Shown here: positions 165 to 47,925 of the stretch, in pieces
Layout of the letters: each line of letters begins with the position of its first letter
Position numbering within the stretch: position 1 is the first letter of the stretch
Origin: Pseudoxanthomonas koreensis
Lineage (GTDB): Bacteria > Pseudomonadota > Gammaproteobacteria > Xanthomonadales > Xanthomonadaceae
Length of the DNA: 64,000 nucleotides
NCBI RefSeq assembly: GCF_010093225.1
Contig: NZ_PDWM01000003.1
Location: 1-64,000, forward strand
Direction: 5' to 3'
Translations under genes and position numbers: made by a program
Notes under the pieces: model-generated
Told to the model about the DNA's origin: nothing
What the model saw: only the letters and a program-made list of their open reading frames with translations
Databases searched by the model: none

Positions 165-651
165 TCATGGACATGCACATCCACGACCGTTTCCGGGGGC
201 TCGTGAGCTGCGCCGCGGCAGGGTGTCGCTGCCGGGGCAGGTCTATCACGTGACCGCGGTCACGCGCGACCGGCAGGCGTGGTTTGCGGACTTCCATGTG
301 GCGTGCACCGCGGTGCGCGCTTTCCGTGAGCCGGCCGCGCTTGGAGATGCCCGGCTGCTGGCCTGGGTGCTGATGCCGGACCACGTGCACTGGCTGCTGC
401 AGCTCGGCGAACGCATGCCGCTGGAGATGGTGGTGGCGCGGATGAAGGCCGCCGTCGGCGTGCAGGCCAATCGGGTGCTGTTCCGTGCCGGCCCACTGTG
501 GGCACCGGCGTTCCACGACCGCGCGCTGCGCAGGGAGGACGACCTGCGGGCCACGGCCCGCTACATCGTCGCCAATCCGTTGCGGGCCGGGATGGTCGAC
601 CACCTCGGCGACTACCCCTTCTGGGACAGCGTCTGGCTGAACCCCGTGTAG
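109..651 (+). CDS. REP-associated tyrosine transposase (RAYT, Y1/HUH family)
   Basis: This is a 180-residue Y1-type HUH nuclease of the RAYT group. These proteins bind and nick single-stranded REP hairpins and are thought to spread REP sequences. The HUH motif is seen as MPDHVHWLL (His92, His94) and the probable nucleophile Tyr152 as ARYIVANPLRAG; LRRGRVSLPGQVYHVT is the usual family start. The first 30 or so residues are atypical, so the true start is uncertain and may be a GTG near 223. The gene lies against a truncated DUF3300 gene, and its TAG stop (649-651) is the first triplet of a two-armed repeat. A RAYT gene next to its REP is the classical arrangement, so this is the likely enzyme for the repeats in this window. 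Confidence 0.88.
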   Translation: MTWSPPSAATGEGARATCAHGHAHPRPFPGARELRRGRVSLPGQVYHVTAVTRDRQAWFADFHVACTAVRAFREPAALGDARLLAWVLMPDHVHWLLQLGERMPLEMVVARMKAAVGVQANRVLFRAGPLWAPAFHDRALRREDDLRATARYIVANPLRAGMVDHLGDYPFWDSVWLNPV

Positions 652-784
652 GAGCCCACTTCAGGGGGCGACCCGACGCGGCAGGATCGTAGCTGCGTTC
701 AACGCGAGCGCTCGGTCCCCGGGTGTGCACGTTGACCGCGATACCTTTTGACGGGACGGGGTCGCCCCCTGAAGTGGGCTCCTA
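649..784. repeat. REPIN R1: inverted pair of REP arms after the RAYT gene
   Basis: The left arm at 649 starts GTAGGAGCCCACTTCAGG and the right arm, ending at 784, is its reverse complement. Each arm can fold as a six-pair hairpin (one A/G mismatch) around a TTCA loop. The spacer has a partial inner repeat (GTTCAACGCG on the left, GTTGACCGCG on the right). The left arm's TAG is the stop codon of the RAYT gene. The 3' end of the antitoxin gene lies 24 bases past the right arm. Confidence 0.9.
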
Positions 785-807
785 CAGGGGGATGGCCCCT
801 TTTTGCT

Positions 808-1167
808 TCAGGCGCCGATCAGGCTTTCGACCGGGATGCCCAGGTTCCTGTGCAGGTTGCGGATCATCGGAATCGTCAGTTCGCGGCGGCCGTTGAGGAT
901 TTCGTAGACCCGGTTGCGCTGTCCGATCGAGGGGATCAGGTCCTTGGCGGTGAGGCCGGCCTGCTCCATCCGGAACTTGATCGCTTCGATCGGGTCGGGG
1001 GGCCCGATGGGATGGCGCCTGGCTTCGTAGGACTCGATCAGGGTGACGAGGATGTCGAACTCGTCGCCCTCGGCGGTTCCTGGCTCGGGCTCGTGGTCGA
1101 AGAAGTACGAGGCGGCCTGCAGGGCCTCCTGGTAATCCTTTTCCGTGCGGATGGGCCGGAGGGTCAT
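808..1167 (-). CDS. higA: HigA-type antitoxin, XRE helix-turn-helix
   Basis: This 119-residue protein has a C-terminal XRE helix-turn-helix (about 60-119), with KFRMEQAGLTAKDL as the first helices, RNRVYEILNGRR as the recognition region and IRNLHRNLGIP at the end. That is the layout of antitoxins paired with HigB-like mRNA interferases. The antitoxin neutralises the toxin and normally represses the operon. Its ATG (1167-1165) overlaps the toxin's TGA (1166-1164) in an ATGA junction, so the two are translationally coupled. The order is toxin first, typical of higBA. A longer frame runs further upstream, but the coupled ATG is the better start. The TGA stop is 24 bases beyond REPIN R1. Confidence 0.82.
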   Translation of the reverse strand: MTLRPIRTEKDYQEALQAASYFFDHEPEPGTAEGDEFDILVTLIESYEARRHPIGPPDPIEAIKFRMEQAGLTAKDLIPSIGQRNRVYEILNGRRELTIPMIRNLHRNLGIPVESLIGA

Positions 1168-1469
1168 GGCATGTGCTCCACCGTTGCGGCGTCGATCCTG
1201 TCGTACTCGGCGTGGGTGCCGATGAACTTGATGTACACGGCCTGGAATCCGTAGGCGACGGCCACCACCAGCCGATAGTGGTTGCCCCGGAGGTTGAACA
1301 CGACGCGATTGCCGCCCACGAAGCTGGCGTGGGCATACATGTCCTTGATGTCCTGTGGGGAGCGCCAGTTCGCGGCCTTTGCTTCGTCGTGCCACGACTG
1401 CAGCGTTTGCTCCGAATCGGGGTGGCGTTTCCAGAAGGCTTCGAGGACGGGCTTGGCAATCACTCTCAC
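1164..1469 (-). CDS. higB: HigB-family mRNA interferase toxin
   Basis: This is a 101-residue toxin of the HigB (RelE-like) family, which cleaves mRNA on the ribosome. The pattern is typical: VIAKPVLEAFWKRHPDSE at the N-terminus, LQSWHDEAKAANWRSP, VVFNLRGNHYRLVV in the central sheet and VYIKFIGTHAEYDRID near the C-terminus. The frame stays open to 1610 without domain signal, so I place the start at a GTG (1469-1467), just after the palindromic operator at 1479-1497. It lies upstream of the antitoxin gene and overlaps it by 4 bases. The pair sits between a RAYT/REPIN unit and ybgC in what looks like a small accessory insertion. Confidence 0.8.
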   Translation of the reverse strand: MRVIAKPVLEAFWKRHPDSEQTLQSWHDEAKAANWRSPQDIKDMYAHASFVGGNRVVFNLRGNHYRLVVAVAYGFQAVYIKFIGTHAEYDRIDAATVEHMP

Positions 1470-1478
1470 GGGGCACCA

Positions 1479-1497
1479 TAGTCCCAAATTGGGACTA
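1479..1497. promoter_or_regulatory. Palindromic operator of the higBA operon
   Basis: A perfect 19-base palindrome, TAGTCCCAA-A-TTGGGACTA, lies 10 bases upstream of the proposed higB GTG start. A helix-turn-helix antitoxin normally binds such a dyad as a dimer and represses its own operon. The AT-rich centre stands out from the surrounding GC-rich DNA. Confidence 0.7.
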
Positions 1498-1675
1498 GCG
1501 TCAAGGGTCACGGCACGGGGGTGGGCAGGGGTGAACCCAGCATGCCCTGCGGTCAGGACGTGGGGCATAGGGAGGAGCCGGGCAAAGGTGTCGGAATCGA
1601 CGGAATTCAATCGGATGTTTCCTCCGGCCCCTTTTCTTCGTCATGCTTGGCGGCCTTTGGGTGGGGTGGCCGCCG

Positions 1676-2086
1676 ATGTTCAGCATTCCGATACGCGTGT
1701 ACTGGGAAGATACCGACGCCGGTGGTGTGGTCTACCACGCGCGCTACGTGGCGTTCCTCGAACGCGCGCGCAGTGACGCGCTGCGGGCGATCGGCCAGGG
1801 CCAGCGGTCGTTGCAGCAGGCCGGGCAGGTGTTCGCGGTGCATTCGATGCGGCTGGACTTCCTGCGCCCGGCGCGGCTGGACGACCTGCTCGAGGTGACC
1901 GCGGAGATCACCCACCTGGGCCGGGCCAGCGTGGTCTTCGCCCAGCGCATCCTGCGCGGGGAGGAGCTGCTGCTGGCGGCGGAGGTGAAGGTGGCCTCGC
2001 TGCGCGCGGCCGATTTCCGCCCCTGCCCGATCGAGGGCGGGCTGCACCGGGAACTGGCGGCGCTGCAGGCCGGTCCCACCCCCTGA
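1676..2086 (+). CDS. ybgC: YbgC acyl-CoA thioesterase of the Tol-Pal cluster
   Basis: This 136-residue hot-dog-fold thioesterase acts in the cytoplasm on acyl-CoA or acyl-ACP and is usually the first gene of the tol-pal operon. IRVYWEDTDAGGVVYHARYVAFLERARSD carries the catalytic Asp and His of the 4HBT/YbgC family. I use the ATG at 1676, which matches the family start; an earlier ATG at 1643 would add 11 unlikely residues. tolQ follows after 81 bases. In Pseudomonas the gene upstream is ruvB; here it is a toxin-antitoxin operon. Confidence 0.9.
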   Translation: MFSIPIRVYWEDTDAGGVVYHARYVAFLERARSDALRAIGQGQRSLQQAGQVFAVHSMRLDFLRPARLDDLLEVTAEITHLGRASVVFAQRILRGEELLLAAEVKVASLRAADFRPCPIEGGLHRELAALQAGPTP

Positions 2087-2167
2087 TTCCCGCGGCGCGG
2101 CCAACCCCGTCCGCCCGCCCCGGGCGTTGCACCCAGACATACCAATAAGAGAAGAGGAACTGGAAGG

Positions 2168-2944
2168 ATGACCGGATCGATCATGGCCCTGGTGGCCACC
2201 GTGGTGGAGGCGTTGCCGGAGGATGCGGCCGCGGCCGCCGTCCAGGCCGCGGCCGGCGCCGCGCACGGCGGGATCAACTACCTGGACCTGATGCTGCGGG
2301 CCAGCCTGCCGGTCAAGCTGATCGTGCTGCTGCTGTTGGCCGGGTCGCTGATCAGCTGGGTGATCATCTTCCGCAAGCTGCGCAGCTTCAAGGCAGCCGA
2401 CCAGGAGGCCGACGAGTTCGAGAACCGGTTCTGGTCCGGCGCCGAGCTGGGCAAGCTGTACGCGGCGGCCACCGACCGCAACCGCGTGGTCGGCGGGCTG
2501 GAGGCGATCTTCGAGGCCGGCTTCCGCGAGTTCACCCGCCTGCGCGACAAGCGCCGGCACGACCCGCGCGCGCAGCTGGAGGGCGCGCAGCGGGCGATGC
2601 GGGTGGCCTATACCCGCGAGGTCGGGCTGCTGGAGCGCAACCTCGAGTTGCTGGCCAACATCGGTTCCACCGCGCCGTACGTGGGCCTGGTCGGCACCGT
2701 GTTCGGGATCATGGTGACCATGCACGACATGGTCAGCCAGGGCGCGCAGGTGGGCATCGCCTCGGTGGCGCCGGGTATTTCCGAGGCGCTGTTCGCCACC
2801 GCCATCGGCCTGTTCGTGGCGATCCCGGCGGTGTGGGCGTTCAACCGCTACAGCACCCGCGTGGAGCGGCTGGCGCAGCGCTACGAGAGCTTCGCCGATG
2901 AATTCAGCTCGATCCTGCAGCGCCAGACCGGCGCGGACGAATGA
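2168..2944 (+). CDS. tolQ: TolQ, inner-membrane proton-channel subunit
   Basis: TolQ (258 residues) is a MotA/ExbB-family subunit of the inner-membrane TolQR motor. The motor uses the proton gradient to drive TolA, which constricts the outer membrane at division. Membrane segments are visible at about 47-68 (VKLIVLLLLAGSLISWVIIF), about 155-185 (ANIGSTAPYVGLVGTVFGIM) and about 200-230 (GISEALFATAIGLFVAIPAV). GGAAGG directly abuts the ATG, so the ribosome may use GAGG about 10 bases upstream, or the second Met at 2183. The operon order ybgC-tolQ-tolR-tolA-tolB-pal-cpoB is standard. Confidence 0.95.
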   Translation: MTGSIMALVATVVEALPEDAAAAAVQAAAGAAHGGINYLDLMLRASLPVKLIVLLLLAGSLISWVIIFRKLRSFKAADQEADEFENRFWSGAELGKLYAAATDRNRVVGGLEAIFEAGFREFTRLRDKRRHDPRAQLEGAQRAMRVAYTREVGLLERNLELLANIGSTAPYVGLVGTVFGIMVTMHDMVSQGAQVGIASVAPGISEALFATAIGLFVAIPAVWAFNRYSTRVERLAQRYESFADEFSSILQRQTGADE

Positions 2945-2972
2945 GTCCGCGCGGACCTGACAGGAGCACGCC

Positions 2973-3419
<447 letters not shown>

Positions 3420-3432
3420 GGCCGGGCCGCTG

Positions 3433-4422
3433 ATGCACGCCGACGCTTTCTACCGCAATCCCGGCGAGCGCGAGGGCGGGCTCGGCGGCCCGCTGGCGTT
3501 GGCCGTTGGCCTGCATGTGCTGGTGGCGCTGCTGTTCTGGGCAGCGTGGCTGTGGTCGCCGCAGCGGCATGCGGAGCCGGCGGCCGGGTCGCCGGTGATC
3601 GAGGCCTCGCTGGTGATGTCGCCGGCCGACGTGGCCGCCGCGCAGAAGCGGGCCGAGGACGCGCCCAAGCCCGAGCCGCTGCCGCAGCCGGTGCAGGAGG
3701 TGGCCGAGGAAGAGACCGTGCCGCCGCCGCAGCCGATCCCCGAGCCGCGCCCGCAGGACGCGCCGGTGGCTCCGCAGCAGAAGGCCCAGGATTTCATCCC
3801 GGTCCCGGACACGGTCGAGCAGGACGCCGCCCGCCGCGATGCGATCGCCCGCGAGAAGGCCGAGCGCGAGCAGGAAGAGCGCCGCCGCCAGGAGCAGGTC
3901 GACCTGACCGAGGAGCGCGAGCGGCAGAAGGCCGCCGAGAACCAGCGCCGGCTGGCCGCGCAGGCCGAGGCGGAGAAGCAGCAGAAGCTGGCCGAGATCC
4001 GCAAGCAGCGCGAGCAGGCCGCCCGCCAGGCCGACCTGGCCGAGCAGAAGCTGCGCCAGCTGCAGCAGGTGCAGCAACGCCAGGCCACCGCGGCGGCCAC
4101 GCCGTCGCAGGGCACGCCGGGGCAGGGCGGGAACAGCGAGGACCTGACCGCGAAGTACGCCGCCGCGATCCAGGAGGCGGTGCTGGGCCAGTGGATCCGC
4201 CCGGATACCGTGCCGCTGGGGCAGCGTTGCCGGGTTTCGATCCGGCAGATCCCCGGTGGCGAGGTGATCGACGTGGAGGTGCAGCCGGGCTGCCCGTTCG
4301 ACGAAGCCGGCCGCCGCTCGCTGGAAGCCGCCGTGCTGCGCGCCAAGCCGCTGCCGTACCGCGGCTTCGAGTCGGTGTTCCAGCCCACCCTGACCCTGAA
4401 CTTCGAAGCCCAGGACCGCTGA
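3433..4422 (+). CDS. tolA: TolA, periplasm-spanning energy transducer
   Basis: TolA (329 residues) links the TolQR motor to Pal and TolB at the outer membrane. It has a single membrane helix near residues 18-40 (LALAVGLHVLVALLFWAAWL), a long Pro-rich then Lys/Glu/Ala/Gln-rich helical region (about 70-220, with EREQEERRRQEQVDL and similar runs) and a C-terminal globular domain (about 240-329) with the TonB/TolA fold. I use the ATG at 3433; an earlier ATG at 3391 lies inside tolR and adds residues without family support. REPIN R2 begins 45 bases after the stop. Confidence 0.93.
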   Translation: MHADAFYRNPGEREGGLGGPLALAVGLHVLVALLFWAAWLWSPQRHAEPAAGSPVIEASLVMSPADVAAAQKRAEDAPKPEPLPQPVQEVAEEETVPPPQPIPEPRPQDAPVAPQQKAQDFIPVPDTVEQDAARRDAIAREKAEREQEERRRQEQVDLTEERERQKAAENQRRLAAQAEAEKQQKLAEIRKQREQAARQADLAEQKLRQLQQVQQRQATAAATPSQGTPGQGGNSEDLTAKYAAAIQEAVLGQWIRPDTVPLGQRCRVSIRQIPGGEVIDVEVQPGCPFDEAGRRSLEAAVLRAKPLPYRGFESVFQPTLTLNFEAQDR

Positions 4423-4467
4423 CGCCGGGGTGCCGCGCCGTTCCTCCAGACCCGGCACGCCTTTCTG

Positions 4468-4599
4468 TAGGAGCCCACTTCAGGGGGCGACCCGACGCCG
4501 TCACCGGGCCGCGGTGTTCAACGCGACCCCTCCGGCCGGGTTCGCGTTGAACGCGGTGGTGGCCAGCGTCCTCGGGTCGCCCCCTGAAGTGGGCTCCTA
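4468..4599. repeat. REPIN R2 between tolA and tolB
   Basis: Two inverted arms (GTAGGAGCCCACTTCAGG family) flank a 70-80-base spacer with the inner inverted repeat GTTCAACGCGAC/TCGCGTTGAAC. The element splits the tol operon between tolA and tolB in the 307-base gap 4423-4729, so it could attenuate or process the transcript. The rest of the gap (4600-4729) is relatively AT-rich before tolB (CTCTTTTCGTTCATGATTGC) and may hold a tolB promoter, but no clear -35/-10 pair is visible. Confidence 0.9.
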
Positions 4600-4729
4600 C
4601 AGGAGAGGCGTTGGGGGCGTCGGCGGCCTCCATGAACCTGCGTTCACGCTCTTTTCGTTCATGATTGCGAAAATGTTCACGCCTACGCTGCTATTCCTCT
4701 GTGCCCGGACCGGAGCCGACGCCTAGCCC

Positions 4730-6049
4730 ATGAAGACCCCCCTGCGCTGGTTTGCCCTGCTTGCCTTCCTCCTGCTGCCGTTCGCGGCCTCGGCCCAGCA
4801 GCAGGGCCTGGAGATCGACATCATCGGCGGCAACGCTTCGGCCCTGCCGATCACCGTGGTGCCGATGCCGTACCAGGGCAGCGGCACGCCGTCGGAAACC
4901 GACGTGGCCAAGGTGGTGCGCGACGACCTGGCCCGCTCGGGCGTGTTCCGGACCCTGCCGGAGGCGCAGATCGTCGAGCGCCCGACCCGCGGCGGCGAGA
5001 TCAACTACCCGACCTGGAAGCAGCTGCGCCAGGACTACATCGTGGTCGGCCGCATGCTCGACGGCGGCGACGGCGGTTACCGGATCGAATACGAGCTGTT
5101 CGACGTGGCCCGCGGCGAGCGCCTGCTCGGCCAGGCCATCACCGCCCGCGCCAATGCCACCCGCGATGCCGCCCACCAGATCGCCGACGCCATCTACGAG
5201 AAGATCACCGGCGTGCGCGGCGCGTTCTGGACCCGGGTGGCCTACGTCACCGCCAGCGGCCGCGGCAAGGACATGCGCTTCGCGCTCAACGTCGCCGACG
5301 CCGACGGCTGGAACCCGCAGGTGGTGGTGCGCTCGGCCGAGCCGCTGCTGTCGCCGTCGTGGAGCCCGGACGGGCGCAAGCTGGCCTACGTCAGCTTCGA
5401 ACGCGGCAACTCGGCGATCTACGTGCAGGACATTTCCTCGGGCGCGCGCGAGCTGGTCTCCAGCTTCCGCGGCATCAACGGCGCGCCGTCGTTCTCGCCG
5501 GACGGGCGCAAGCTGGCCATGTCGCTGTCGCGCAGCGGCAACCCTGAGATCTACGTGATGGACCTGGGCAGCAAGCAGCTGACCCAGCTGACCAACCACT
5601 TCGGCATCGACACCGAGCCGACCTGGAGCGCGGACGGTTCGAAGATCTACTTCACCTCCGATCGCGGCGGCCGCCCGCAGATCTACCAGGTGGCCGCCAG
5701 CGGCGGCAGCGCCACCCGGGTCACCTTCCAGGGCAACTACAACGCCACCGCCTCGGTGTCCTACGACGACAAGAAGATCGCGGTGGCCCAGGGCGCCGGC
5801 AACACCTACCGGATCGCGCTGATGGACTCCAGCCTGGGGTCGCCGCGCTGGAGCACGGTGTCCACCGGCAACCTGGACGAATCGCCCAGCTTCGCCCCCA
5901 ACGCCAGCATGCTGCTGTACGCGGCGCGCGAGGGCGGGCGCGGGGTGCTGTATGCCGTTTCGGCCGACGGCCGGGTGCGCCAGCGCCTGGTCCTGGCCGA
6001 CGGCGACGTGCGCGAGCCGGCCTGGTCCCCCTACCGCAGCGCCCGTTAA
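4730..6049 (+). CDS. tolB: TolB, periplasmic beta-propeller protein
   Basis: TolB (439 residues) is a periplasmic protein that binds Pal and is released from it by TolA during outer-membrane constriction. A Sec signal peptide covers about residues 1-22 (ending FAASA/QQ). The N-terminal domain (about 25-160) is followed by a six-bladed propeller with WD40-like repeats such as SWSPDGRKLAYVSFE, SFSPDGRKLAMSLSR and TWSADGSKIYFTSDRGG. The ATG at 4730 directly precedes the signal peptide. The stop is TAA, one of only three TAA stops in the window, and pal follows 67 bases later. Confidence 0.95.
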   Translation: MKTPLRWFALLAFLLLPFAASAQQQGLEIDIIGGNASALPITVVPMPYQGSGTPSETDVAKVVRDDLARSGVFRTLPEAQIVERPTRGGEINYPTWKQLRQDYIVVGRMLDGGDGGYRIEYELFDVARGERLLGQAITARANATRDAAHQIADAIYEKITGVRGAFWTRVAYVTASGRGKDMRFALNVADADGWNPQVVVRSAEPLLSPSWSPDGRKLAYVSFERGNSAIYVQDISSGARELVSSFRGINGAPSFSPDGRKLAMSLSRSGNPEIYVMDLGSKQLTQLTNHFGIDTEPTWSADGSKIYFTSDRGGRPQIYQVAASGGSATRVTFQGNYNATASVSYDDKKIAVAQGAGNTYRIALMDSSLGSPRWSTVSTGNLDESPSFAPNASMLLYAAREGGRGVLYAVSADGRVRQRLVLADGDVREPAWSPYRSAR

Positions 6050-6629: not shown

Positions 6630-6632
6630 TCC

Positions 6633-8131: not shown

Positions 8132-8815
8132 ATGAAGAAGGCTGTCGTCCTGGTTTCCGGTGGCATGGATTCGGCCGTGGTCGTGGCCATCGCCCGCGAG
8201 CAGGGCTTCGCCGTGCATGCGCTGAGCGTGCGCTACGGCCAGCGCCACACCTCCGAACTGGAAGCCGCCGACCGCGTGTCGCGCGCGCTGGGCGCGGTGG
8301 CGCACAAGACCGTGGACGTGGACCTGCGCAGCATCGGCGGCTCTGCCCTGACCGACGACATCGAGGTACCGGATGCCGGCGGCGAGGGCATCCCGGTCAC
8401 CTACGTGCCGGCGCGCAACACGATCATGCTCTCGCTGGCGCTGGGCTGGGCCGAGGTGCTGGGCGCGGCGGACATCTTCTGCGGGGTCAACGCGGTGGAC
8501 TACTCCGGCTACCCGGACTGCCGCCCGGAGTTCATCGCGGCCTTCGAGCGCCTGGCCAACCTGGCGACCAAGGCCGGCGTGGAGGGCGCGGGGATCCGCG
8601 TGCACGCGCCGCTGATGCGCATGGGCAAGGACGACATCGTGCGCGAGGGCCTGCGCCTGGGCGTGGACTTCGGCCAGACCGTGTCGTGCTACCGCGCCGA
8701 TGCCGACGGCCAGGCCTGCGGCCACTGCGACGCCTGCCGCCTGCGCGCCGCCGGCTTCGAAGCCGCCGGCGTGGCCGACCCGACGCGCTACACGGACGGT
8801 GGTGCCCCACTGTAG
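8132..8815 (+). CDS. queC: QueC, 7-cyano-7-deazaguanine (preQ0) synthase
   Basis: QueC (227 residues) converts 7-carboxy-7-deazaguanine to preQ0 using ATP and ammonia. The PP-loop SGGMDSAV is at residues 9-16 and the zinc-binding cysteines are in [20 protein letters not shown] near the C-terminus. It begins 1 base after queE. Its stop codon is the TAG of the left arm of REPIN R3, so the repeat begins exactly where the gene ends. Confidence 0.95.
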
Positions 8816-8943
8816 GAGCCCACTTCAGGGGGCGACCCGACGAGGGTGGGAGGCGCGACGATCAACGCGACGCTTCCGGATGGACCGCGTTGAACGAGGC
8901 TGCGCCATTGCGGCCGGGGGTCGCCCCCTGAAGTGGGCTCCTA
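8813..8943. repeat. REPIN R3 at the queC stop codon
   Basis: Two inverted arms enclose a spacer with ATCAACGCGACG, TCCGGA and CGCGTTGAACG, again an inner inverted repeat around a TCCGGA centre. The left arm's TAG is the stop of queC. It lies between queC and the hairpin and promoter region of tRNA-Lys. Confidence 0.9.
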
Positions 8944-8953
8944 CAGGGGGAGC

Positions 8954-13990: not shown

Positions 13991-13996
13991 CCCCTG

Positions 13997-14129
13997 TAGG
14001 AGCACACTTCAGGGGGCGACCCGATGCCGCTGGATTACGCGGTATTCAACGCGCGCCTATCCGGAAGGGTCGCGTTCAATGCGGCATGCGTTCCAACGTC
14101 CCGGGGTCGCCCCCTGAAGTGGGCTCCTA
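13997..14129. repeat. REPIN R4 between lhr and recQ
   Basis: Two inverted arms; the left arm has one change (GAGCACAC for GAGCCCAC). The spacer has TTCAACGCGC, TATCCGGA and TCGCGTTCAA, the usual inner inverted repeat. It lies between the convergent 3' ends of lhr (7 bases away) and recQ. The stretch 14130-14222 holds no other clear feature. Confidence 0.9.
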
Positions 14130-14222
14130 CAGGAGGCGCCGCGGGGCGCGTTGGGTGCGCGGCGCGGGTGCGTCGCAGTGGGTCGCGGGAGGCGCTGTTG
14201 CAGCGCGAGTGCGCCCGATGCC

Positions 14223-18051: not shown

Positions 18052-18177
18052 CGGGGCGAGGGTGTCGGGGGTTGGCCAGTTTCACCGACTCGGCGCGCCC
18101 GCGGCAAACCCGCCGCGTCGTGTTGCCCTCACCGCGCGCCGCGGCGAACGCGTCGCGTGGCGTGCCTTGCCTTTCTG

Positions 18178-18313
18178 TAGGAGCCCACTTCAGGGGGCGA
18201 CCCGACGACCTCCAGGTTGCGCGGCGTTCAACGCGACCGCTCGGATCCGGAGAGTCCGCGTTCGACGAGGGTGCCTTGCAGGGCGTCGGGTCGCCCCCTG
18301 AAGTGGGCTCCTA
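18178..18313. repeat. REPIN R6 between kefC and the ABC-F gene
   Basis: Two inverted arms with the inner repeat GTTCAACGCGAC, GGATCCGGA, GTCCGCGTTCGAC. It lies in the 369-base gap between the divergent kefC (minus) and ABC-F (plus) genes. Apart from this repeat the gap holds the AT-rich promoter-like region at about 18320-18361 and nothing else that I recognise. Confidence 0.9.
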
Positions 18314-18355
18314 CAAAAAACAGTTTGTTAAGTTTTTGTTATTGGCCGTTGCCGG

Positions 18356-27414: not shown

Positions 27415-28005
27415 ATGATCGGACGCCTGCGTGGCATCCTCGCCCTCAAGCAACCGCCGTGGCTGGTGGTCGACGTCAACGGCGTCGGCTACGAGCTGGA
27501 GGCGCCGATGAGCACTTTCTACGACCTGCCCGAACTCGGCCGCGAGGTGTCGCTGTTCACCCACTACGCGCAGAAGGAGGACAGCGTCTCGCTGTACGGG
27601 TTCCTGCGCGAACCGGAGCGGCGCCTGTTCCGCGACGTGCAGAAGGTCAGCGGCATCGGCGCGAAGATCGCGCTGGCGGTGCTGTCGGGGGTGAGCGTGG
27701 ACGAGTTCGCGCGGCTGGTGCAGGCCGGCGACGTCACCGCGCTGACCCGGATCCCCGGCATCGGCAAGAAGACCGCCGAGCGCATGGTGGTGGAACTGCG
27801 CGACCGTGCCGCGGGCCTGACCGGCACCGGCGTGCCCGGCGGCATGCCGGCGGCGGCCGGCGACCCGGTCGCCGACGCGGCCACCGCCCTGCAGCAGCTG
27901 GGCTACAAACCGGTCGAAGCGGCGCGCATGGCACGCGACGCGGCCGCCGCCGGCGACGAGGCCGCGGCGATCATCCGCAAGGCGTTGCAGTCGGCACTGC
28001 GCTGA
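27415..28005 (+). CDS. ruvA: RuvA, Holliday-junction branch-migration subunit
   Basis: RuvA (196 residues) binds Holliday junctions as a tetramer and loads RuvB. The OB-fold N-terminal domain ([21 protein letters not shown]) is followed by two helix-hairpin-helix motifs ([17 protein letters not shown] and [19 protein letters not shown]), and a C-terminal domain (about 145-196) contacts RuvB. AGGAG lies 9 bases before the ATG at 27415. The kup gene separates it from ruvB, though the three ruv genes usually stay together. Confidence 0.95.
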
Positions 28006-30027: not shown

Positions 30028-31053
30028 ATGACCGACGACCGCATCATCGCCTCCGGCGCAACCCGCGAGGACGAGGCCATCGAGGCCTCGATCCGCCCGA
30101 AGCGCCTGGACGAATACCTGGGCCAGCAGCCGGTGCGCGAGCAACTGGCGATCTACATCGAGGCCGCCCGCCGCCGCGGCGAGGCCATGGATCACGTGCT
30201 GATCTTCGGTCCGCCGGGACTGGGCAAGACCACGCTCAGCCATGTGATCGCCAACGAACTGGGGGTGAACCTGCGGGTCACTTCCGGCCCGGTGATCGAG
30301 AAGGCCGGCGACCTGGCCGCACTGCTGACCAACCTGCAGCCGCACGACGTGCTGTTCATCGACGAGATCCACCGCATGTCGCCGGTGGTCGAGGAAGTCC
30401 TCTATCCGGCGATGGAGGATTTCCAGATCGACATCATGATCGGCGAGGGTCCGGCCGCGCGCTCGATCAAGCTCGACCTGCCGCCCTTCACCCTGATCGG
30501 TGCCACCACCCGCGCCGGCCTGCTCACCGCGCCGCTGCGCGACCGCTTCGGCATCGTCCAGCGCCTGGAGTTCTACAGCCCGGAGGAACTGACCCGGATC
30601 GTGCGCCGCTCGGCGGCGATCCTGGGCATCGACTGCGAGGCCACCGGCGCCGGCGAGATCGCGCGGCGCGCGCGCGGCACCCCGCGCATCGCCAACCGCC
30701 TGCTGCGCCGCGTGCGCGACTACGCCCAGGTCCGCGCCGGCGGCCACATCGACGCGGCCACCGCCGAGGCGGCGATGGCCATGCTCAAGGTCGATCCGGA
30801 AGGCTTCGACGAACTCGACCGGCGCCTGCTGCGCATCATCGTCGAGCACTTCGACGGCGGCCCGGTCGGGGTGGAATCGCTGGCCGCCTCCCTTTCCGAG
30901 GAGCGCGGCACGCTCGAGGACGTGATCGAGCCCTACCTGATCCAGCAGGGCTTCCTGGTGCGCACCGCGCGCGGCCGCATGGCCACGTCCAAGGCGTACC
31001 GCCACCTGGGCCTCAAGCCCCCCGCCCCCCGCGAAACCGGCGAGCTGCTGTAG
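30028..31053 (+). CDS. ruvB: RuvB, Holliday-junction branch-migration ATPase
   Basis: RuvB (341 residues) is a hexameric AAA+ motor that drives branch migration. Visible motifs are [19 protein letters not shown] at the start, Walker [12 protein letters not shown] (about 58), Walker [10 protein letters not shown], sensor 1 [10 protein letters not shown] with the arginine finger in [14 protein letters not shown], and the C-terminal winged helix (about 260-335). The ATG has no recognisable ribosome-binding site within 8 bases. The stop is the TAG of REPIN R8, which also ends the convergent pdxA. Confidence 0.95.
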
Positions 31054-31179
31054 GAGCTCCCTTCAGGGGCGACCCGGTCACGCCGGGAGACGCTGCGTTC
31101 AACGCATGGCCTCCGGATCGGTCGCCTTGAACGCCGCTGTGATCCGACCATCCCGGGTCGCCCCTGAAGGGAGCTCCTA
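31051..31179. repeat. REPIN R8 between convergent ruvB and pdxA
   Basis: This variant has arms GTAGGAGCTCCCTTCAGGGG and its complement, so the stem differs from the main type but keeps the GTAGGAG start and TTCA loop. The spacer keeps the inner repeat (GTTCAACGC, CTCCGGA, CCTTGAAC). The left arm's TAG stops ruvB (31051-31053) and the right arm's TAG, read on the minus strand (31179-31177), stops pdxA. The element thus fills the whole intergenic space. Confidence 0.9.
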
Positions 31180-32154
31180 CAAGGAGCGCAGCACTGCGAT
31201 GCGGGCGCAGGTGGTTACCGCCGCCTCCAGGCTCGACGGATCGGCCAGCCCGCGGCCGGCCAGGTCCGGCGCGGTGCCGTGGTCGACGGCCACGCGCGGG
31301 TAGGGCAGCCCGAGGGTCAGGTTCACCGCACGCTCGAAGCCGCTGTACTTGAGCACCGGCAATCCCTGGTCGTGGTACATCGCCAGCACCGCGTCGAACC
31401 CGCGCAGCTTGCCGGGCAGGAACGCCGTATCGGCCGGCAGTGGCCCGACCAGCGCCATGCCCTCGCCGCGGAGTTCCTCCAGCACGGGGATGATCGTGTC
31501 GATCTCCTCGCTGCCCAGGTGCCCGCTCTCGCCTGCGTGCGGGTTCAGGCCCAGCACCGCGATCACCGGCGCGGCGATGCCGAAGTCCGCGCACAGCGCC
31601 GCATGCGTGGTCCGCAGCACCCGGCGCAGCAGCGGCGCGTCGATCGCGTCGGCGACCTGGCGCAGCGGCAGGTGGGTGGTGGCCAGCGCGACCCGGACGA
31701 TATCGTTGGCCAGCATCATCACCACCTCGCGGCCGGCGTGGCCGGCGAGCAGCTCGGTGGTGCCGGTGTAGGCGATCCCGCCCTCGTTGATCGTGGCCTT
31801 CTGCACCGGCCCGGTGACCATGCCGGCGAAGTCGCCGCGCATGCAGCCGTCGGCGGCGGCGAGCAGGGCGCCGACCACCGCGCCGGCGTTGCGCGGATCG
31901 GGCCGGCCGAAGACCGCCGCGTTGGCGTTGGGGAACATGCGCAGCGGCAGGTCGCCGGGCGCCTGCGCCGGCTGGTCCTCGTGCAGCAGGTTGAGCGGCA
32001 GCGACAGCGCCGCGGCGGCCGCCTGCAGCGCGGCAGGATCGGCGAAGGCGACCAGGGTGCAGTCGGTGCGCGGCCGCTGGGCCAGGCGCACGCACAGTTC
32101 AGGCCCGACCCCGGCCGGTTCGCCCGGTACCAGCGCGAGCCGGGGCAGGGACAT
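31177..32154 (-). CDS. pdxA: PdxA, 4-hydroxythreonine-4-phosphate dehydrogenase
   Basis: PdxA (325 residues) oxidises 4-phosphohydroxy-L-threonine in pyridoxal phosphate synthesis. The family pattern is clear: LALVPGEPAGVGPELCVRLA at the N-terminus, GPVQKATINEGGIAYTGTTELLA with substrate and metal contacts, VALATTHLPLR, LGLNPHAGESGHLGSEE, and ALYHDQG-type metal ligands in AMYHDQGLPVLKY. It lies 10 bases downstream of surA, a common arrangement (surA-pdxA-ksgA), though ksgA is not here. The stop TAG comes from the right arm of REPIN R8. Confidence 0.95.
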   Translation of the reverse strand: MSLPRLALVPGEPAGVGPELCVRLAQRPRTDCTLVAFADPAALQAAAAALSLPLNLLHEDQPAQAPGDLPLRMFPNANAAVFGRPDPRNAGAVVGALLAAADGCMRGDFAGMVTGPVQKATINEGGIAYTGTTELLAGHAGREVVMMLANDIVRVALATTHLPLRQVADAIDAPLLRRVLRTTHAALCADFGIAAPVIAVLGLNPHAGESGHLGSEEIDTIIPVLEELRGEGMALVGPLPADTAFLPGKLRGFDAVLAMYHDQGLPVLKYSGFERAVNLTLGLPYPRVAVDHGTAPDLAGRGLADPSSLEAAVTTCARIAVLRSL

Positions 32155-40681: not shown

Positions 40682-40702
40682 GCCGCTTCTGCGCTTTTTT
40701 TG

Positions 40703-40832
40703 CAGGAGCCCACTTCAGGGGGCGACCCGCAGGCACCGGAAGGCGCGTTGTTGAACGTGGGGTCTCCGGAAGCGTGGCTGTTGAACGAGGCGTTTCCTTA
40801 CGCTTTCGGGTCGCCCATGAATGGGGCTCCTA
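40703..40832. repeat. REPIN R9 between ubiI-like gene and EF-hand gene
   Basis: The left arm (CAGGAGCCCACTTCAGGGGG) has lost the T of GTAG; the right arm is degenerate (CCCATGAATGGGGCTCCTA). The spacer carries GTTGAACG twice in the same direction instead of an inverted inner repeat, and TCTCCGGA in the middle. The right arm's TAG, read on the minus strand, is the stop of the EF-hand gene. It looks older than most copies. Confidence 0.8.
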
Positions 40833-41219
40833 CAGGATCCAGCCGGCCAGTTCTTCCCGGTCCAGGCGGCCGTCGCGGTTCGTGTCGGTGCGGTCGAACC
40901 CGCGCAGCAGGTAGCGATCGGCCGCGCCGGCCTCCTTGCGGTCCACGCTGCCGTCGCCGTCCGCGTCGAACACGTCGAAGTCGAAGCGGTCGCCACCGAC
41001 CAGGCTGCGCGGTTCCAGCGAGCGGATGATGGTGCGCTCGCCGTTCGGACCTTCAAGCACCACCATGCCGGTCTGGCGTTGCAGCGGCTGTTCCGCCGGC
41101 GTGGCCGGCGGCGGTGGCAGCGGCGAGGTGCTGGCCGGCGTGCCGCGCTGGGCCAGCGCGTCGCCGCCGGCGGCGAGCAGGAACACCAGCGACGCGAACG
41201 TGATTGCGGGACGGATCAT
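40830..41219 (-). CDS. Exported EF-hand protein
   Basis: This 129-residue protein has a signal peptide (about 1-24, MIRPAITFASLVFLLAAGGDALA/Q), a Pro-rich spacer (TSPLPPPPATPAEQP) and two calcium-binding EF-hand loops: DADGDGSVDRKE (about 86-97) and DTNRDGRLDREE (about 112-123), both with Asp at positions 1, 3, 5 and Glu at 12. It should bind calcium in the periplasm or outside. The function is unknown. It lies 13 bases downstream of the oxidoreductase gene on the minus strand. A possible ribosome-binding site, AGGAG at 41233-41229, comes from a repeat remnant. The stop TAG comes from REPIN R9. Confidence 0.82.
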   Translation of the reverse strand: MIRPAITFASLVFLLAAGGDALAQRGTPASTSPLPPPPATPAEQPLQRQTGMVVLEGPNGERTIIRSLEPRSLVGGDRFDFDVFDADGDGSVDRKEAGAADRYLLRGFDRTDTNRDGRLDREELAGWIL

Positions 41220-41225
41220 GGCGGG

Positions 41226-41238
41226 CAGGCTCCTACAG
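41226..41238. repeat. Arm-start remnant at the oxidoreductase stop
   Basis: Read on the minus strand the sequence is ATCCTGTAGGAGCC, the first bases of a REPIN arm. Its TAG is the stop of the oxidoreductase gene (41235-41233), and the following AGGAG sits 10 bases before the EF-hand ATG, a usable Shine-Dalgarno sequence. No hairpin or second arm remains. Confidence 0.5.
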
Positions 41239-42375: not shown

Positions 42376-42612
42376 GTTTTCTCCGGGGTGCGAATGGCGG
42401 CGTGACGTCCCGAACGATAAGGCGATGTCACGAAGCAACGCCAGCCGTTCGTGCGTGCGGCCCGCGCAGCACGCGCCCTGGCACGCAGGCCCGCGCGAAG
42501 GGAAGCCCGCCGGGCGGGCCCGGCGCCACAGGCGCGGCGTAAGATGCCTGCGGCAGTCCCGGCTGCTGCGACGGGCACCGCCGATACTGGCGCATTGGAG
42601 GAGAGCAAGCCG

Positions 42613-43332
42613 ATGCAACCGCTGGAACTGAACGACCCGGCCGCGTTCGCCGCCGAATTCCTGCGCCAGACCCAGCTGCAGGGTTTCGGCGCGCTGAGCC
42701 GGCGCGACATGGAGTTGCTGGTGTTCGTGCTGCTCGAACGCGACGGCGCGATCGACCGCAACGCCAGCAACCACGCCGCCGCCCAGCAGCTGCGCGTCAC
42801 TCCGGCGAAACTGCGCGCGCTGCGCCGCGACGGCTACGCGCGCTGGCGCCAGCTGGTGGCCGAGCCCGCCGACGCCGCGCTGCGCCGGATCCTCGGCAAC
42901 GTGCTGGCGTCCGCCAACCTGCGCGCCGGCAGCCGCCATGTCAGCGAGCGCAGCCGCAAGGACGGTTTCCTCGCCGTGCGCGTGGAGCATCCCGACGACC
43001 GCCAGCTGTTCGAACAGGCGATCCTCGATGCTGGTGCGCTGCCGGTGTACGAGCGCAATCGCGAAGTGCTGGCGGTGCGCTTCGATACCCTGGTGGCGCT
43101 GGCCGAGCGCAGCGGTTTCCTGCAGCCGGACACCGAAGCGGTGGTGAAGGAACTGCGCAGGCTGGCGCCCGGTTCGGAGGAACTGGCCGACCTGCTGAAG
43201 AAGGACGTGGCCAAGCTGCGCTGGGAAGACGCGCGCAACGCGCTCAACAGCCTCGGCGCCAAGGCCGTGTCGACCAGCGCCGAGGGCGCGGTGAAGGCGC
43301 TGCTGAAGCTGGTGTTCCCGTTCCTGCCCTGA
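42613..43332 (+). CDS. Conserved protein of unknown function
   Basis: I do not recognise this 239-residue protein. It has no signal peptide or membrane helix. The first half (about 1-95) is helical and may form a helix-turn-helix-like unit (MELLVFVLLERDGAIDRNASNHAAAQQLRVTPAKLRALRRDGYARW). The middle has RSRKDGFLAVRVEHPDDRQLFEQAILDAGA. The end is helical and hydrophobic (AVKALLKLVFPFLP). A strong GGAGGAGAG lies 10 bases before the ATG at 42613, which decides the start; an open frame upstream from 42451 has no support. REPIN R10 begins 57 bases after the stop. The 237 bases upstream hold no clear feature. Confidence 0.72.
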   Translation: MQPLELNDPAAFAAEFLRQTQLQGFGALSRRDMELLVFVLLERDGAIDRNASNHAAAQQLRVTPAKLRALRRDGYARWRQLVAEPADAALRRILGNVLASANLRAGSRHVSERSRKDGFLAVRVEHPDDRQLFEQAILDAGALPVYERNREVLAVRFDTLVALAERSGFLQPDTEAVVKELRRLAPGSEELADLLKKDVAKLRWEDARNALNSLGAKAVSTSAEGAVKALLKLVFPFLP

Positions 43333-43389
43333 GCTGGCGCCGTCGCGGTCGTTTGCGCCTGGCCCCGTGCGGCATCCGGCTGCTGTCTG

Positions 43390-43485
43390 TAGGAGCTGAC
43401 TTCAGTCGGCGACACGGCGCCGCCGGCACAGGCGACGCCGCTGTGATTCCGCGTCGACCGTTTCGCCGACTGAAGTCAGCTCCTA
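43390..43485. repeat. REPIN R10, short variant between the unknown gene and rlmM
   Basis: The arms are GTAGGAGCTGACTTCAGTCGGCGAC and its complement, cited here by its parts: GCTGAC-TTCA-GTCGGC is a perfect six-pair hairpin with one G-T pair. This is a third stem type in the family. The element is about 96 bases, shorter than the others, and its spacer lacks the inner GTTCAACGCG repeat. The right arm's TAG, read on the minus strand, is the stop of rlmM. Confidence 0.88.
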
Positions 43486-44535
43486 CAAGGGCGTGGCGAA
43501 GACGGTGATCTCTTCGCGGTCGTGGTAGAGCTGTTTCGCGCGCACCTGCAGCGGGCGCCCGGCCTGCGCGGCGAACAGGTCCAGGCACAGCCGGGTCTCC
43601 TGCCAGCGCTTCTTCATCGGCAGCTTGAGGTTGAACACCGCGTGCCGGCACCAGCCTTCGCGGAACCACTGCGCCATGCGCGCGGCGACCTTGGCCGGCT
43701 GCTCCACCATGTCGCAGACCATCCAGTCCAGCGGCCGTGCCGGCTGCCAGTGGAAGCCGTCGGCGCGCAGGTGCTCGACCAGGCCGGTGTCGAGCACGTG
43801 CTGGCGCAGCGGGCCGTTGTCGACCGAGGTGACGCGCAGGTGCTGGCGGGTGAGCACCCAGGTCCAGCCGCCGGGCGCGGCGCCGAGGTCGGCGGCGGTC
43901 ATGCCCGGGCGCAGCAGGCGTTCGCGCTCGCCGGCGTCGAGCAGGACGAGGAAGGCTTCCTCCAGCTTCAGCGCCGAGCGCGAAGGTGCGTCGGGCAGCA
44001 GCTTCAGCCGCGGGATGCCCAGCGGCCACGGCGCGCTGTCGCGCGGATCGGCCAGCGCCAGCAGCGCGTGGTCGCCGGCGAGGAAGCACACGTGCAGGCG
44101 CGGCAGCCGCGGATCCTCCTTCGGCGAAAGGACGCCGGCCTTGCGCAGGGCCGGGCGCAGCGCGTTGCCGAAGCTGCGCGCCAGCGCCGACAGCGGCTTG
44201 CCCGCGTCCGAATCCGGATGCTCGACCCACAGGTCGCCGATGCGCAGGTCGCCGGGCAGTGCGGCGAGCAGCGGGGTGAGGCGGTCCTTCGGATCCAGTC
44301 CGCGCAGTTCGGCGAACAGGCGCAGCTTCTGCCGTGGGAACACCAGGTCGCGGAAGGGCAGGGCGCGGTCCAGTGCCCGTGCGTCGGCCTCGTCGCCAGT
44401 GACGAACAGTACGTAACCATCGTCGCGGCTGGCGCGTGCATAGCCGGCGATCCCGGCCATTGCCGCGCGCTCGCCCAGTTCGGCGGCCAGCTCCGGTTCG
44501 AAGCCCTGGCGGCAGTAGCCGAGCAGGCCGTTCAT
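43483..44535 (-). CDS. rlmM: RlmM, 23S rRNA C2498 ribose 2'-O-methyltransferase
   Basis: RlmM (350 residues) methylates the ribose of C2498 in 23S rRNA. It has an N-terminal THUMP-like domain (about 1-160, MNGLLGYCRQGFEPELA) and a Rossmann methyltransferase domain with AADLGAAPGGWTWVLTRQHL (SAM motif, about 205-222), DWMVCDMVEQPAKVAARMAQW (catalytic Asp region) and NLKLPMKKRW (catalytic Lys). The ATG at 44535 is the family start. The stop TAG comes from the right arm of REPIN R10. It follows the deaminase gene after 40 bases. Confidence 0.94.
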   Translation of the reverse strand: MNGLLGYCRQGFEPELAAELGERAAMAGIAGYARASRDDGYVLFVTGDEADARALDRALPFRDLVFPRQKLRLFAELRGLDPKDRLTPLLAALPGDLRIGDLWVEHPDSDAGKPLSALARSFGNALRPALRKAGVLSPKEDPRLPRLHVCFLAGDHALLALADPRDSAPWPLGIPRLKLLPDAPSRSALKLEEAFLVLLDAGERERLLRPGMTAADLGAAPGGWTWVLTRQHLRVTSVDNGPLRQHVLDTGLVEHLRADGFHWQPARPLDWMVCDMVEQPAKVAARMAQWFREGWCRHAVFNLKLPMKKRWQETRLCLDLFAAQAGRPLQVRAKQLYHDREEITVFATPL

Positions 44536-44575
44536 GCGTGTTCCCGGCGTCGCGCGCGGCACGCGTTGCCACGCA

Positions 44576-45136
44576 TCAGTAGTTCTCGCCGCCGCTTTCG
44601 CCGTAGGCGCGCAGCACCGCGCGCGCATCGGTGCGCAGGATGTCGCGGGCCACGGCGATACCGCGCTTCTCCAGTTCGCCGATCCAGTCCGCCGGCAGCG
44701 GGCCTTCGTCGAACTCGGTCAGTTCCATCACATCCTCGGCGCGGGCGCCGATCAGCAGGCGGTCGATGCCGGCCCAGATGGTGGCGCCGTAGCACTGGCA
44801 GCACGGTTGCGAGGAGGTGGCCAGGGTCACCGGCGCCAGCACGTCGTTCAGGCGCGGCGCCTGCAGCCGCTGCTGGGCGAGCATGTAGGCCATGTTCTCC
44901 GCATGCGCCAGCGAGGTGGTGTGCGGCACCACCCGGTTCACCCCGGCGGCGATCACCCGATGATCCGGGCCGAACACCACAGCGCCGAACGGCCCGCCGC
45001 TGCGCGCCTCGACATTGCGCCGCGACAGTTCGATCGCCAGCGCGACCTTGTCCTCGTCTGAGACGAAGGTCGCCGCCTGGTCGAACGCCTCGTGGATCCA
45101 GGCGGGCAGGGTGAGGTGGACCTGGGCGTAGAGCAT
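44576..45136 (-). CDS. Nucleoside or guanine deaminase, CDA superfamily
   Basis: This 186-residue protein has the cytidine/deoxycytidylate deaminase fold. Zinc ligands and the catalytic acid are in LAHAENMAYMLAQ (HAE) and SSQPCCQCYGAT (PCxxC, with a double Cys), while GGPFGAVVFGPDHRVIAAGVN is the substrate-side loop. The best match is the guanine-deaminase-like group of nucleoside deaminases. The ATG at 45136 is the only good start. It is 11 bases downstream of glnS; rlmM follows it on the same strand. Confidence 0.87.
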   Translation of the reverse strand: MLYAQVHLTLPAWIHEAFDQAATFVSDEDKVALAIELSRRNVEARSGGPFGAVVFGPDHRVIAAGVNRVVPHTTSLAHAENMAYMLAQQRLQAPRLNDVLAPVTLATSSQPCCQCYGATIWAGIDRLLIGARAEDVMELTEFDEGPLPADWIGELEKRGIAVARDILRTDARAVLRAYGESGGENY

Positions 45137-45147
45137 GGCCGCCGCGC

Positions 45148-46896
<1,749 letters not shown>

Positions 46897-46990
46897 GGAG
46901 CGGGGGAGTCGAAGGCCAAACCGGCAGTTTAGCCGAGCGGCCCCGGCGGCGGGCCGTCGGGCGTATGCTTCGGGCAGCCTGGAGAACGCC

Positions 46991-47251
46991 ATGCAGGTCG
47001 TCTACCGCGCCCACAACCTGATCGACGCCCATCTCGCCCGCCACGCGCTGGAGGATGCCGGCATCCCTGCCTTCGTCTTCGGCGAGAACCTGCTTGGCGG
47101 TGCCGGCGAACTGCCGCTGTTCGGCGTGCTGCGGGTCTGCGTGCCCGACCCCTGCGTACCCGACGCGGACGCGGCGTTGCAGGCGGCGGGCTTGGGTGGC
47201 GACGAACCCGACCCCATTCCTGATGGCGAACCCGGCCTGTTGCCGGCCTGA
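46991..47251 (+). CDS. DUF2007 family small protein
   Basis: This 86-residue protein matches the DUF2007 (putative signal-transducing) pattern: [35 protein letters not shown], followed by [23 protein letters not shown]. These proteins have a compact alpha/beta fold similar to the PII/ACT-like small domains; no function is established. The ATG is preceded by GGAGAA at 7 bases. It precedes msrA by 11 bases and may be co-transcribed with it. Confidence 0.8.
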
Positions 47252-47262
47252 CGGAGCCCGCG

Positions 47263-47925
47263 ATGACCCCCGGATCCCTGCCCGGTCCGCCCGGAGTCGG
47301 CGCCTGGAAGCAGCGGCTGCCGCGCGACCAGGACCTGCTCCCGGGCCGCGAGCAGCCCTTGCCGCTGCACAACGCCCACCACGTGCACGGCCGCCCGCTG
47401 CGCGGCGATTTCCCCGGCATGGAAACGGTCGACCTCGGCCTGGGCTGCTTCTGGGGCGCCGAGCGCAGGTTCTGGCAGCTGCCGGGCGTGTTCACCACCG
47501 CCGTCGGCTACGCCGGCGGCGGCACGCCGAACCCGACCTACGAGGAAGTGTGCTCGGGCCGGACCGGCCACGCCGAGGTGGTGCGGGTGGTCTACGACCC
47601 CGCGCAGGTGGATTTCGCCACCGTGCTGAAGACCTTCTGGGAGAGCCACGACCCGACCCAGGGCATGCGCCAGGGCAACGACATCGGCAGCCAGTACCGC
47701 TCGGCCCTCTACTGCCACACCCCCGCCCAGCACGCGACCGCGCTGGCCAGCCGCGACGCCTACCAGGCATCGCTGCAGGCCTCCGGCTACCCGCCGGTCA
47801 CCACCGGAATCGCCTGGCCGCCGCCGCCGTTCTTCCACGCCGAGGACTACCACCAGCAGTACCTGTCGAAGAACCCGGCCGGCTACTGCGCCCTCCGCGG
47901 CACCGGCATCTCCTGCCCCTTGTAG
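47263..47925 (+). CDS. msrA: MsrA, peptide methionine-S-sulfoxide reductase
   Basis: MsrA (220 residues) reduces methionine-S-sulfoxide in proteins and uses a catalytic Cys in [13 protein letters not shown] (about residue 62). Resolving cysteines lie near the C-terminus ([14 protein letters not shown]). [18 protein letters not shown] and [21 protein letters not shown] are the other family signatures. The first 50 residues are a longer N-terminal extension than the E. coli enzyme has, as in many homologues. Its stop is the TAG of a solo REP arm, R11. Confidence 0.94.

What the first reader, a model, noticed from the sequence alone, without database searches (positions are those of the whole stretch)
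649..47925. Every TAG stop codon in the window is supplied by a repeat's GTAG
Of 52 complete genes, 41 end in TGA, 3 in TAA (tolB, lhr and the adenosyltransferase gene) and 8 in TAG. All eight TAGs are the TAG of a GTAGGAG arm or arm remnant: the RAYT gene (649), queC (8813), ruvB (31051), pdxA (31179), the EF-hand gene (40832), the oxidoreductase gene (41235), rlmM (43485) and msrA (47923). This suggests that elements insert at or over gene ends, and that insertion can replace a stop and a few terminal codons.
Basis: seen in the sequence. Interest (0 to 1): 0.8.

Follow-up and report, generated by a model that had tools for sequence, protein, structure and literature searches.

The report
Mobile repeat supplies genes' stop codons
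A short mobile DNA repeat in this bacterium carries the letters TAG at both of its edges, and where it sits against the end of a gene those letters serve as the gene's stop signal; the basic fact was already in print, but the comparison with relatives shows how closely the original stop is kept in place.

Summary
The counts are right: 52 complete genes, 41 TGA, 3 TAA, 8 TAG. Seven of the 8 TAGs lie in real repeat arms; the eighth (41235-41233) has no hairpin and looks like the next gene's ribosome-binding site. "Every TAG" fails beyond the window: in 784 kb more of this genome, 22 of 98 TAG stops are in this repeat. The link itself is strong. The repeat is a REPIN (two inverted GTAG REPs, about 133 bp) with a RAYT gene at 109-651. 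Of 131 arms, 29 overlap a same-strand gene end, all in the TAG frame. In six relatives the stop lies within 3 codons for 22 of 28 genes; ruvB TTC-TGA became CTG-TAG. Five of 29 elements between convergent genes supply both stops with no native spacer left. One relative has other REPs at 14 of 28 of these gene ends. Best reading: RAYT-driven insertion, survival only in the TAG frame, loss of native spacer and stop. Di Nocera 2013 already states that GTAG REPs often supply TAG.

The parts
109..651 (+). REP-associated tyrosine transposase (RAYT) gene; its own stop is the TAG of the adjoining repeat arm
   Evidence: NCBIfam NF047646 REP_Tyr_transpos E 6.7e-40; Pfam Y1_Tnp; ends GTG TAG GAG in arm 648
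648..785 (.). REPIN (two inverted REP arms); left arm supplies the RAYT stop 649-651, right arm lies 22 nt beyond the opposing gene's TGA
   Evidence: folds to -99.0 kcal/mol as RNA
4467..4600 (.). REPIN not used as a stop (left arm 44 nt after a TGA)
8812..8944 (.). REPIN; left arm supplies queC stop 8813-8815
13996..14130 (.). REPIN; left arm 5 nt after the helicase gene's TAA
16188..16320 (.). REPIN; right arm 27 nt after a TGA
18177..18314 (.). REPIN between divergent genes; no gene ends into it
31050..31180 (.). REPIN (arm variant GTAGGAGCTCCCTTCAGGGGCGACC) that supplies both convergent stops: ruvB 31051-31053 (+) and pdxA 31179-31177 (-)
   Evidence: ruvB orthologues mostly end TTC TGA
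40702..40833 (.). REPIN with a variant right arm that supplies the EF-hand gene stop 40832-40830 (-); the left arm reads GCAG instead of GTAG
41230..41236 (-). GTAGGAG at the oxidoreductase stop: not a repeat arm; no hairpin found, next gene's ATG after 10 nt; read as a Shine-Dalgarno sequence
43389..43486 (.). shorter REPIN (98 bp, arms GTAGGAGCTGACTTCAGTCGGCGA); right arm supplies rlmM stop 43485-43483 (-)
   Evidence: the same arm type is common in relative G011
47922..47946 (+). single REP arm that supplies the msrA stop 47923-47925; no partner arm in the arm list
51819..51949 (.). REPIN between convergent genes, 19 and 11 nt after their TGAs (not used as a stop)

Best explanation
The repeat is a REPIN: two inverted REP arms GTAGGAGCCCACTTCAGGGGGCGAC around a variable spacer, about 133 bp, probably mobilised by the RAYT at 109-651. 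Both outer edges read YT-GTAGGAG, so in one of three frames the first codons of the element are NTG-TAG, on either strand. The element lies mostly after gene ends, often between convergent genes. If it meets the last codons of a gene in the TAG frame, the protein keeps its length to within a few residues (usually ending in Leu) and the copy survives; in the other two frames translation would run about 38 codons on, and such copies were not found, presumably purged. Native sequence between gene and element, including the old stop, is lost or replaced, so that the element's TAG becomes the stop, independently on each side. SHOWN: the anatomy, the frame exclusivity, conservation of stop position, absence of native spacer in two-sided cases, recurrence in relatives. 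INFERRED: mobility in this genome, purging by selection, and whether the spacer goes in the insertion event, by later deletion, or by exchange of an older REP for a newer one.
For: 131 arms in 848 kb; 29 overlap a same-strand gene end, all in the TAG frame, 0 in other frames ((1/3)^29 if frames were equal). No arm lies 0-4 nt after a stop, 33 lie 5-29 nt after. The other two frames run a median of 38 codons. T at -1 in 131 of 131 arms; CT 86, TT 41, GT 4 at -2/-1, close to the CT cleavage site of characterised TnpA-REP enzymes, for which GTAG is a shown (one enzyme) or proposed guide (passages of PMC8266576). Median length difference from repeat-free orthologues 0 in 11 of 28 genes, within 3 codons in 22 of 28. 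Last residue Leu in 28 of 29 against 5.9% of 675 other genes. 24 of 29 repeat-stopped genes are convergent against 220 of 704 genes. 29 convergent elements: 5 both stops, 13 one, 11 none, close to independence of the sides. Relative G011: 11 of 167 arms in the TAG frame, 0 overlapping a gene otherwise.
Against: No empty site was aligned across both flanks, so the act of insertion was not seen. The number at the stop (29 against about 5 expected for four in-frame positions at the density 5-29 nt downstream) is more than plain insertion plus purging predicts, so a preference for stops or a benefit is not excluded. Repeat-free orthologues of these genes use TAG in 56 of 137 cases against 15 of 77 for other convergent genes, so some TAGs may predate the present element. 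Their lengths vary more than those of control genes (0 in 11 of 28 against 41 of 53). A genome of another genus of the family (G022) with GTAGGAG REPs has none of 35 arms at a stop, so the habit is not general.
Confidence: 0.68

Rival explanations
1. Target-site model: the element inserts next to a pre-existing YTG-TAG (or TAG) stop, so the stop is older than the repeat and the gene is unchanged by the insertion.
For: Repeat-free orthologues of repeat-stopped genes use TAG in 56 of 137 cases against 15 of 77 for other convergent genes, and the codon before TAG is YTG in 16 of 56 against 10 of 71 ordinary TAG stops of this genome. At the C55 66173/66295 pair the four relatives in which both genes were found together all have TAG at both ends. 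23 of the 29 genes have at least one repeat-free TAG orthologue.
Against: Five repeat-stopped genes have repeat-free orthologues and no TAG in any of them among the six relatives, e.g. ruvB TGA in 6 of 6 and C22_30078 TGA in 6 of 6 (in the wider set, 2 of 14 same-genus ruvB genes end TTC-TAG, not YTG-TAG). GTAG is present at both ends of the symmetric element, so it cannot come from one target. Decay of older REPs would leave the same footprint.
Confidence: 0.14
2. Functional model: a large hairpin directly at the stop is selected, as a 3' end that protects mRNA, ends transcription from both sides, or slows terminating ribosomes.
For: The element RNA folds to -91 to -106 kcal/mol with the outer stem starting at GTAG (4 elements folded). 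In E. coli, REPs fewer than 16 nt from a stop are reported to down-regulate translation (passages of PMC12306157, its reference 17). Different species carry different REPs at the same gene ends: 24 of 161 orthologues of repeat-stopped genes begin GTAGGAG or GTAGGAA at the stop against 5 of 259 of others. The number at the stop exceeds the in-frame insertion expectation.
Against: No expression data. The shared property of the sites is mainly that they are convergent gene ends, which may simply be safe harbours. Distances after other stops show no in-frame preference (d mod 3 = 0, 1, 2: 12, 20, 15 of 47).
Confidence: 0.14
3. Chance or sequence motif: GTAGGAG is simply TAG followed by a Shine-Dalgarno core, so TAG stops fall on it by accident.
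For: Probably true for one of the eight, the oxidoreductase stop.
Against: The other seven continue into the REP arm; 23 GTAGGAG in the window against 1.8 expected; 355 arms in the genome against 3 for the reversed pattern.
Confidence: 0.02

Closest known systems
GTAG-tagged REP super-family (Di Nocera et al. 2013, PMC3733652)
   Same: REPs with GTAG at one end; [quoted passage not shown]
   Different: The passages seen give no count of such stops, no reading-frame test and no comparison of C-termini with repeat-free orthologues; here these are measured
REPIN / RAYT system (Bertels and Rainey 2011, PMC3116915; Nunvar et al. 2010, PMC2817692)
   Same: Inverted REP doublet forming one hairpin, conserved arms and less conserved spacer, RAYT gene flanked by the REPs; Nunvar reports REPs immediately downstream of rayt stops (passages seen)
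   Different: 29 of 131 arms here are used as a stop codon. The words 'stop codon' do not occur in the main text of PMC3116915
E. coli REPs fewer than 16 nt from a stop (reported in PMC12306157; I recall the original as Liang, Rudd and Deutscher 2015)
   Same: Hairpin at or just after a stop codon
   Different: There the REP follows the stop; here the stop is inside the REP head. Any effect on translation is untested here

Membership tests
REPIN (REP doublet forming a hairpin) | two REPs in inverted orientation at a fairly fixed spacing | tested here: met
   62 GTAG...CTAC pairs from 131 arms, 56 of them 130-139 bp long
REPIN (REP doublet forming a hairpin) | conserved arms, variable spacer, whole unit folds | tested here: met
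   57 elements of 125-140 bp: 99 of 114 arms identical, mean arm identity 0.97, spacer 0.71 against 0.62 shuffled; 4 of 4 folded elements form one terminal stem
REPIN (REP doublet forming a hairpin) | associated RAYT gene | tested here: met
   window 109-651, NF047646 E 6.7e-40, ends in the repeat at 648
REPIN (REP doublet forming a hairpin) | mobilised by the RAYT | not testable with these tools
   no empty/full site pair from close strains, no assay
GTAG REP super-family | GTAG at the foot of the palindrome | tested here: met
GTAG REP super-family | CT cleavage site for the transposase next to the REP | tested here: inconclusive
   CT in 86, TT in 41, GT in 4 of 131 arms at -2/-1; no cleavage assay
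Translation-dampening REPs of E. coli | lower output of the upstream gene | not testable with these tools
   needs expression data

The most novel reading that the evidence does not exclude
REPINs in this genus live by replacing the ends of convergent genes: the element swaps out the native spacer together with one or both stop codons and writes a new terminal Leu and TAG, at gene ends that are taken again by different REP families in different species. GTAG would then be not only the transposase guide but also a built-in stop that makes the element harmless at gene ends.
Probability: 0.25. Interest if true: 0.6.

Novelty: new member of a known kind. Interest (0 to 1): 0.37.

Why it matters
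It turns a one-line remark in the literature into a measured rule: a mobile element whose edge doubles as a stop codon is found over gene ends in that frame only. It explains part of the TAG usage of a GC-rich genome, warns that C-termini and stop usage can be set by repeats, and offers a set of natural junctions for asking how REPINs spread and whether a hairpin at the stop affects expression.

Tried and rejected
Rejected: all eight window TAGs as repeat TAGs (one looks like a ribosome-binding site). Rejected: 'every TAG' as a genome rule. Rejected: long truncation by insertion, since most repeat-free orthologues end within a few codons. Rejected: the repeat TAG as a selected in-frame backup stop behind native stops (d mod 3 flat, 47 arms). 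A loose pattern search gave three same-strand overlaps in other frames in this genome; on inspection they are ordinary coding GCAGGA, not REPs. The same loose search gave two such overlaps in G011, also GCAGGA. Two weak arms of this genome overlap opposite-strand genes.

Tested and weak: that elements supplying both stops went into shorter native spacers. Smallest gap in relatives: 6, 16, 19, 31, 529 for the five two-sided sites; -40 to 706 for 13 one-sided sites; 4, 27, 54, 70, 97 for 5 of the 11 sites with neither (the others were not searched for or not found). Too few to decide.

Limits of the counts. In the orthologue table I dropped hits under 60% identity, hits whose alignment stopped more than 20 residues short of the C-terminus, open ends, and loci ending within 60 bases of the stop; 420 pairs remained, 161 of them for the 29 repeat-stopped genes. 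In one search I also dropped length differences of 40 or more (one of the 161). The one search test for a REP at an orthologue's stop looks only at the head GTAGGAG or GTAGGAA; with a hairpin check it is 23 of 161 and, in G011, 13 of 28. G003 and G012 are close sisters, so the six relatives are about five independent lines. The six arm types used for G011 were chosen, partly from arms at stops; the looser pattern gave 9 arms at the stop of 201. Searches were scripts of mine that missed many or all loci and were replaced. Control genes are neighbours of the fetched genes, not a random set.

Papers: only the passages that the find option showed were seen; five searches were made, the last of which returned nothing.

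Full report
Check of the counts. Identities were checked with NCBIfam and Pfam for the eight TAG genes and with NCBIfam for the three TAA genes. All eight TAGs read GTAGGAG. Seven continue into a REP arm. The eighth, the oxidoreductase stop at 41235-41233, reads GTAGGAGCCTGCCCGCC followed by the ATG of the EF-hand gene; no stem was found there, while the neighbouring EF-hand stop does have one. It is best read as a Shine-Dalgarno sequence that overlaps a stop.

What the repeat is. Arms read GTAGGAGCCCACTTCAGGGGGCGAC and come in inverted pairs: 62 pairs from 131 arms in 848 kb, 56 of them 130-139 bp long. In 57 elements of 125-140 bp, 99 of 114 arms are identical (mean identity 0.97) while the spacer is little above shuffled (0.71 against 0.62), and four of four folded elements form a single terminal stem of -91 to -106 kcal/mol. 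The window holds a RAYT gene at 109-651, itself stopped by the repeat. This is the anatomy of a REPIN (PMC3116915, passages). A search of the own genome with up to three mismatches finds 176 forward and 179 reverse arms against 1 and 2 for the reversed pattern.

Genome-wide test. The sample is the window plus 40 stretches, 847,988 bases, 704 complete genes: 544 TGA, 106 TAG, 54 TAA. Outside the window 22 of 98 TAG stops lie in this repeat, in the window 7 of 8. So TAG without the repeat is common (76 of 630 other genes outside the window). Twelve further TAG stops begin other GTAG-headed sequences (GTAGAGC-like and GTAGGAGCGGGC types); seven of the twelve have a perfect stem of five or more bases, four of them eight. 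Repeat-derived TAGs are thus 29 of 106 for the family studied and 36 to 41 at most.

The strong result. For each arm the distance to the nearest same-strand gene end was measured (91 of 131 arms have one within -140 to 400). Twenty-nine arms supply the TAG; no arm overlaps a same-strand called gene in another frame; no arm lies 0-4 nt after a stop; 33 lie 5-29 nt after. Two weak arms overlap opposite-strand genes. In the other two frames the reading would run a median of 38 codons before a stop. Relative G011 repeats the pattern with its own REP types: 11 of 167 arms in the TAG frame, the other 156 overlapping no called gene. G022, of another genus of the family, has GTAGGAG REPs but 0 of 35 arms at a stop; 33 overlap no called gene, one lies inside a same-strand gene far from its end and one weak match on the opposite strand of a gene.

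What happened to the proteins. C-termini were compared with six same-genus genomes. For RuvB more were seen: 12 of 14 same-genus orthologues end GELF (10 TGA, 2 TAG), one GELFS-TGA, one GDLF-TGA; here GELL-TAG with the REP. Over the 28 genes with repeat-free orthologues the median length difference is 0 in 11, -1 to -4 in 9, -9 in one, and +1 to +8 in 7; 22 of 28 lie within 3 codons. Control genes are tighter: 41 of 53 at zero. The last residue is Leu in 28 of 29 and Val in one, and the last two are Pro-Leu in 13 of 29 against 1 of 675 other genes. So the stop stays nearly in place while the last residue or two are rewritten.

Replacement, not only insertion. Twenty-four of 29 repeat-stopped genes are convergent, against 220 of 704 genes. 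Of 29 elements with a gene end facing each arm, 5 supply both stops, 13 one and 11 none, close to what independent sides would give. In the two-sided cases no native spacer is left. For four of the five, at least one relative has no repeat at either end and 6 to 779 bases between its two stops; at the fifth (C3 56287/56411) every relative found has a GTAGGAG head at one end at least. A single point insertion cannot give this; loss of spacer, at once or later, is required. The seven longer proteins need the same.

Recurrence. In G011, 14 of 28 orthologues of the repeat-stopped genes also end in a GTAGGA(G/A) head, against 2 of 40 other genes (p = 2e-5); over six relatives 24 of 161 against 5 of 259. 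With a hairpin check the figures are 13 of 28 and 23 of 161. Four of the six relatives taken alone show no significant excess, and G013 is borderline (p = 0.06). Arm sequences differ between species and the stop positions often differ by a codon or more, so many are probably independent events at the same kind of site, but inheritance with exchange of the REP is not excluded. Repeat-free orthologues are richer in TAG (56 of 137; gene bootstrap 30-52%) than those of other convergent genes (15 of 77; 8-31%), which fits decayed REPs or older TAGs. The seven-taxon tree from joined C-terminal pieces has short inner branches and does not settle it.

Mechanism. The Stenotrophomonas TnpA-REP cleaves at CT; GTAG is proposed as the guide that selects the site, shown for a Marinomonas enzyme (PMC8266576, passages). 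All 131 arms here have T at -1 and 127 have CT or TT. The edge YT-GTAG therefore probably follows from transposase chemistry, and the stop codon is a by-product that makes one frame in three safe (inference). Whether the excess at the stop also reflects a benefit is open.

Novelty. Di Nocera et al. 2013 state that GTAG REP termini often provide TAG stop codons to flanking ORFs (they call it opal). Nunvar et al. 2010 note REPs immediately after rayt stops. The counts, the frame test and the orthologue comparison were not in the passages that I saw; the searches were only.

Noticed in passing
L122 (G013), end of the orthologue of C17 7146-8171: A single 31-base palindrome (CTGTAGGAGCCGGCAAGGCCGGCTCCTACAG) supplies the TAG of both convergent genes in this relative.
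   Followed up: partly
own genome contig C1, about 27888-27918: One REP arm appears to sit inside the head of another arm (GTAGGAGCCCCCTGTAGGAGCCCACTTCAG), i.e. REP in REP.
   Followed up: no
own genome C1 24101/24120 and C22 90299/90319: A second palindrome family (GTAGAGCGGGGCTTGCCCCGC and the like) supplies TAG to both genes of convergent pairs.
   Followed up: partly
window as a whole: 22 of the 131 arms found in 848 kb lie in this 64 kb window, which also holds the RAYT gene.
   Followed up: no
window 34855 and 51658: Two further GTAGGAG matches do not continue into the repeat arm; probably chance matches inside genes.
   Followed up: no
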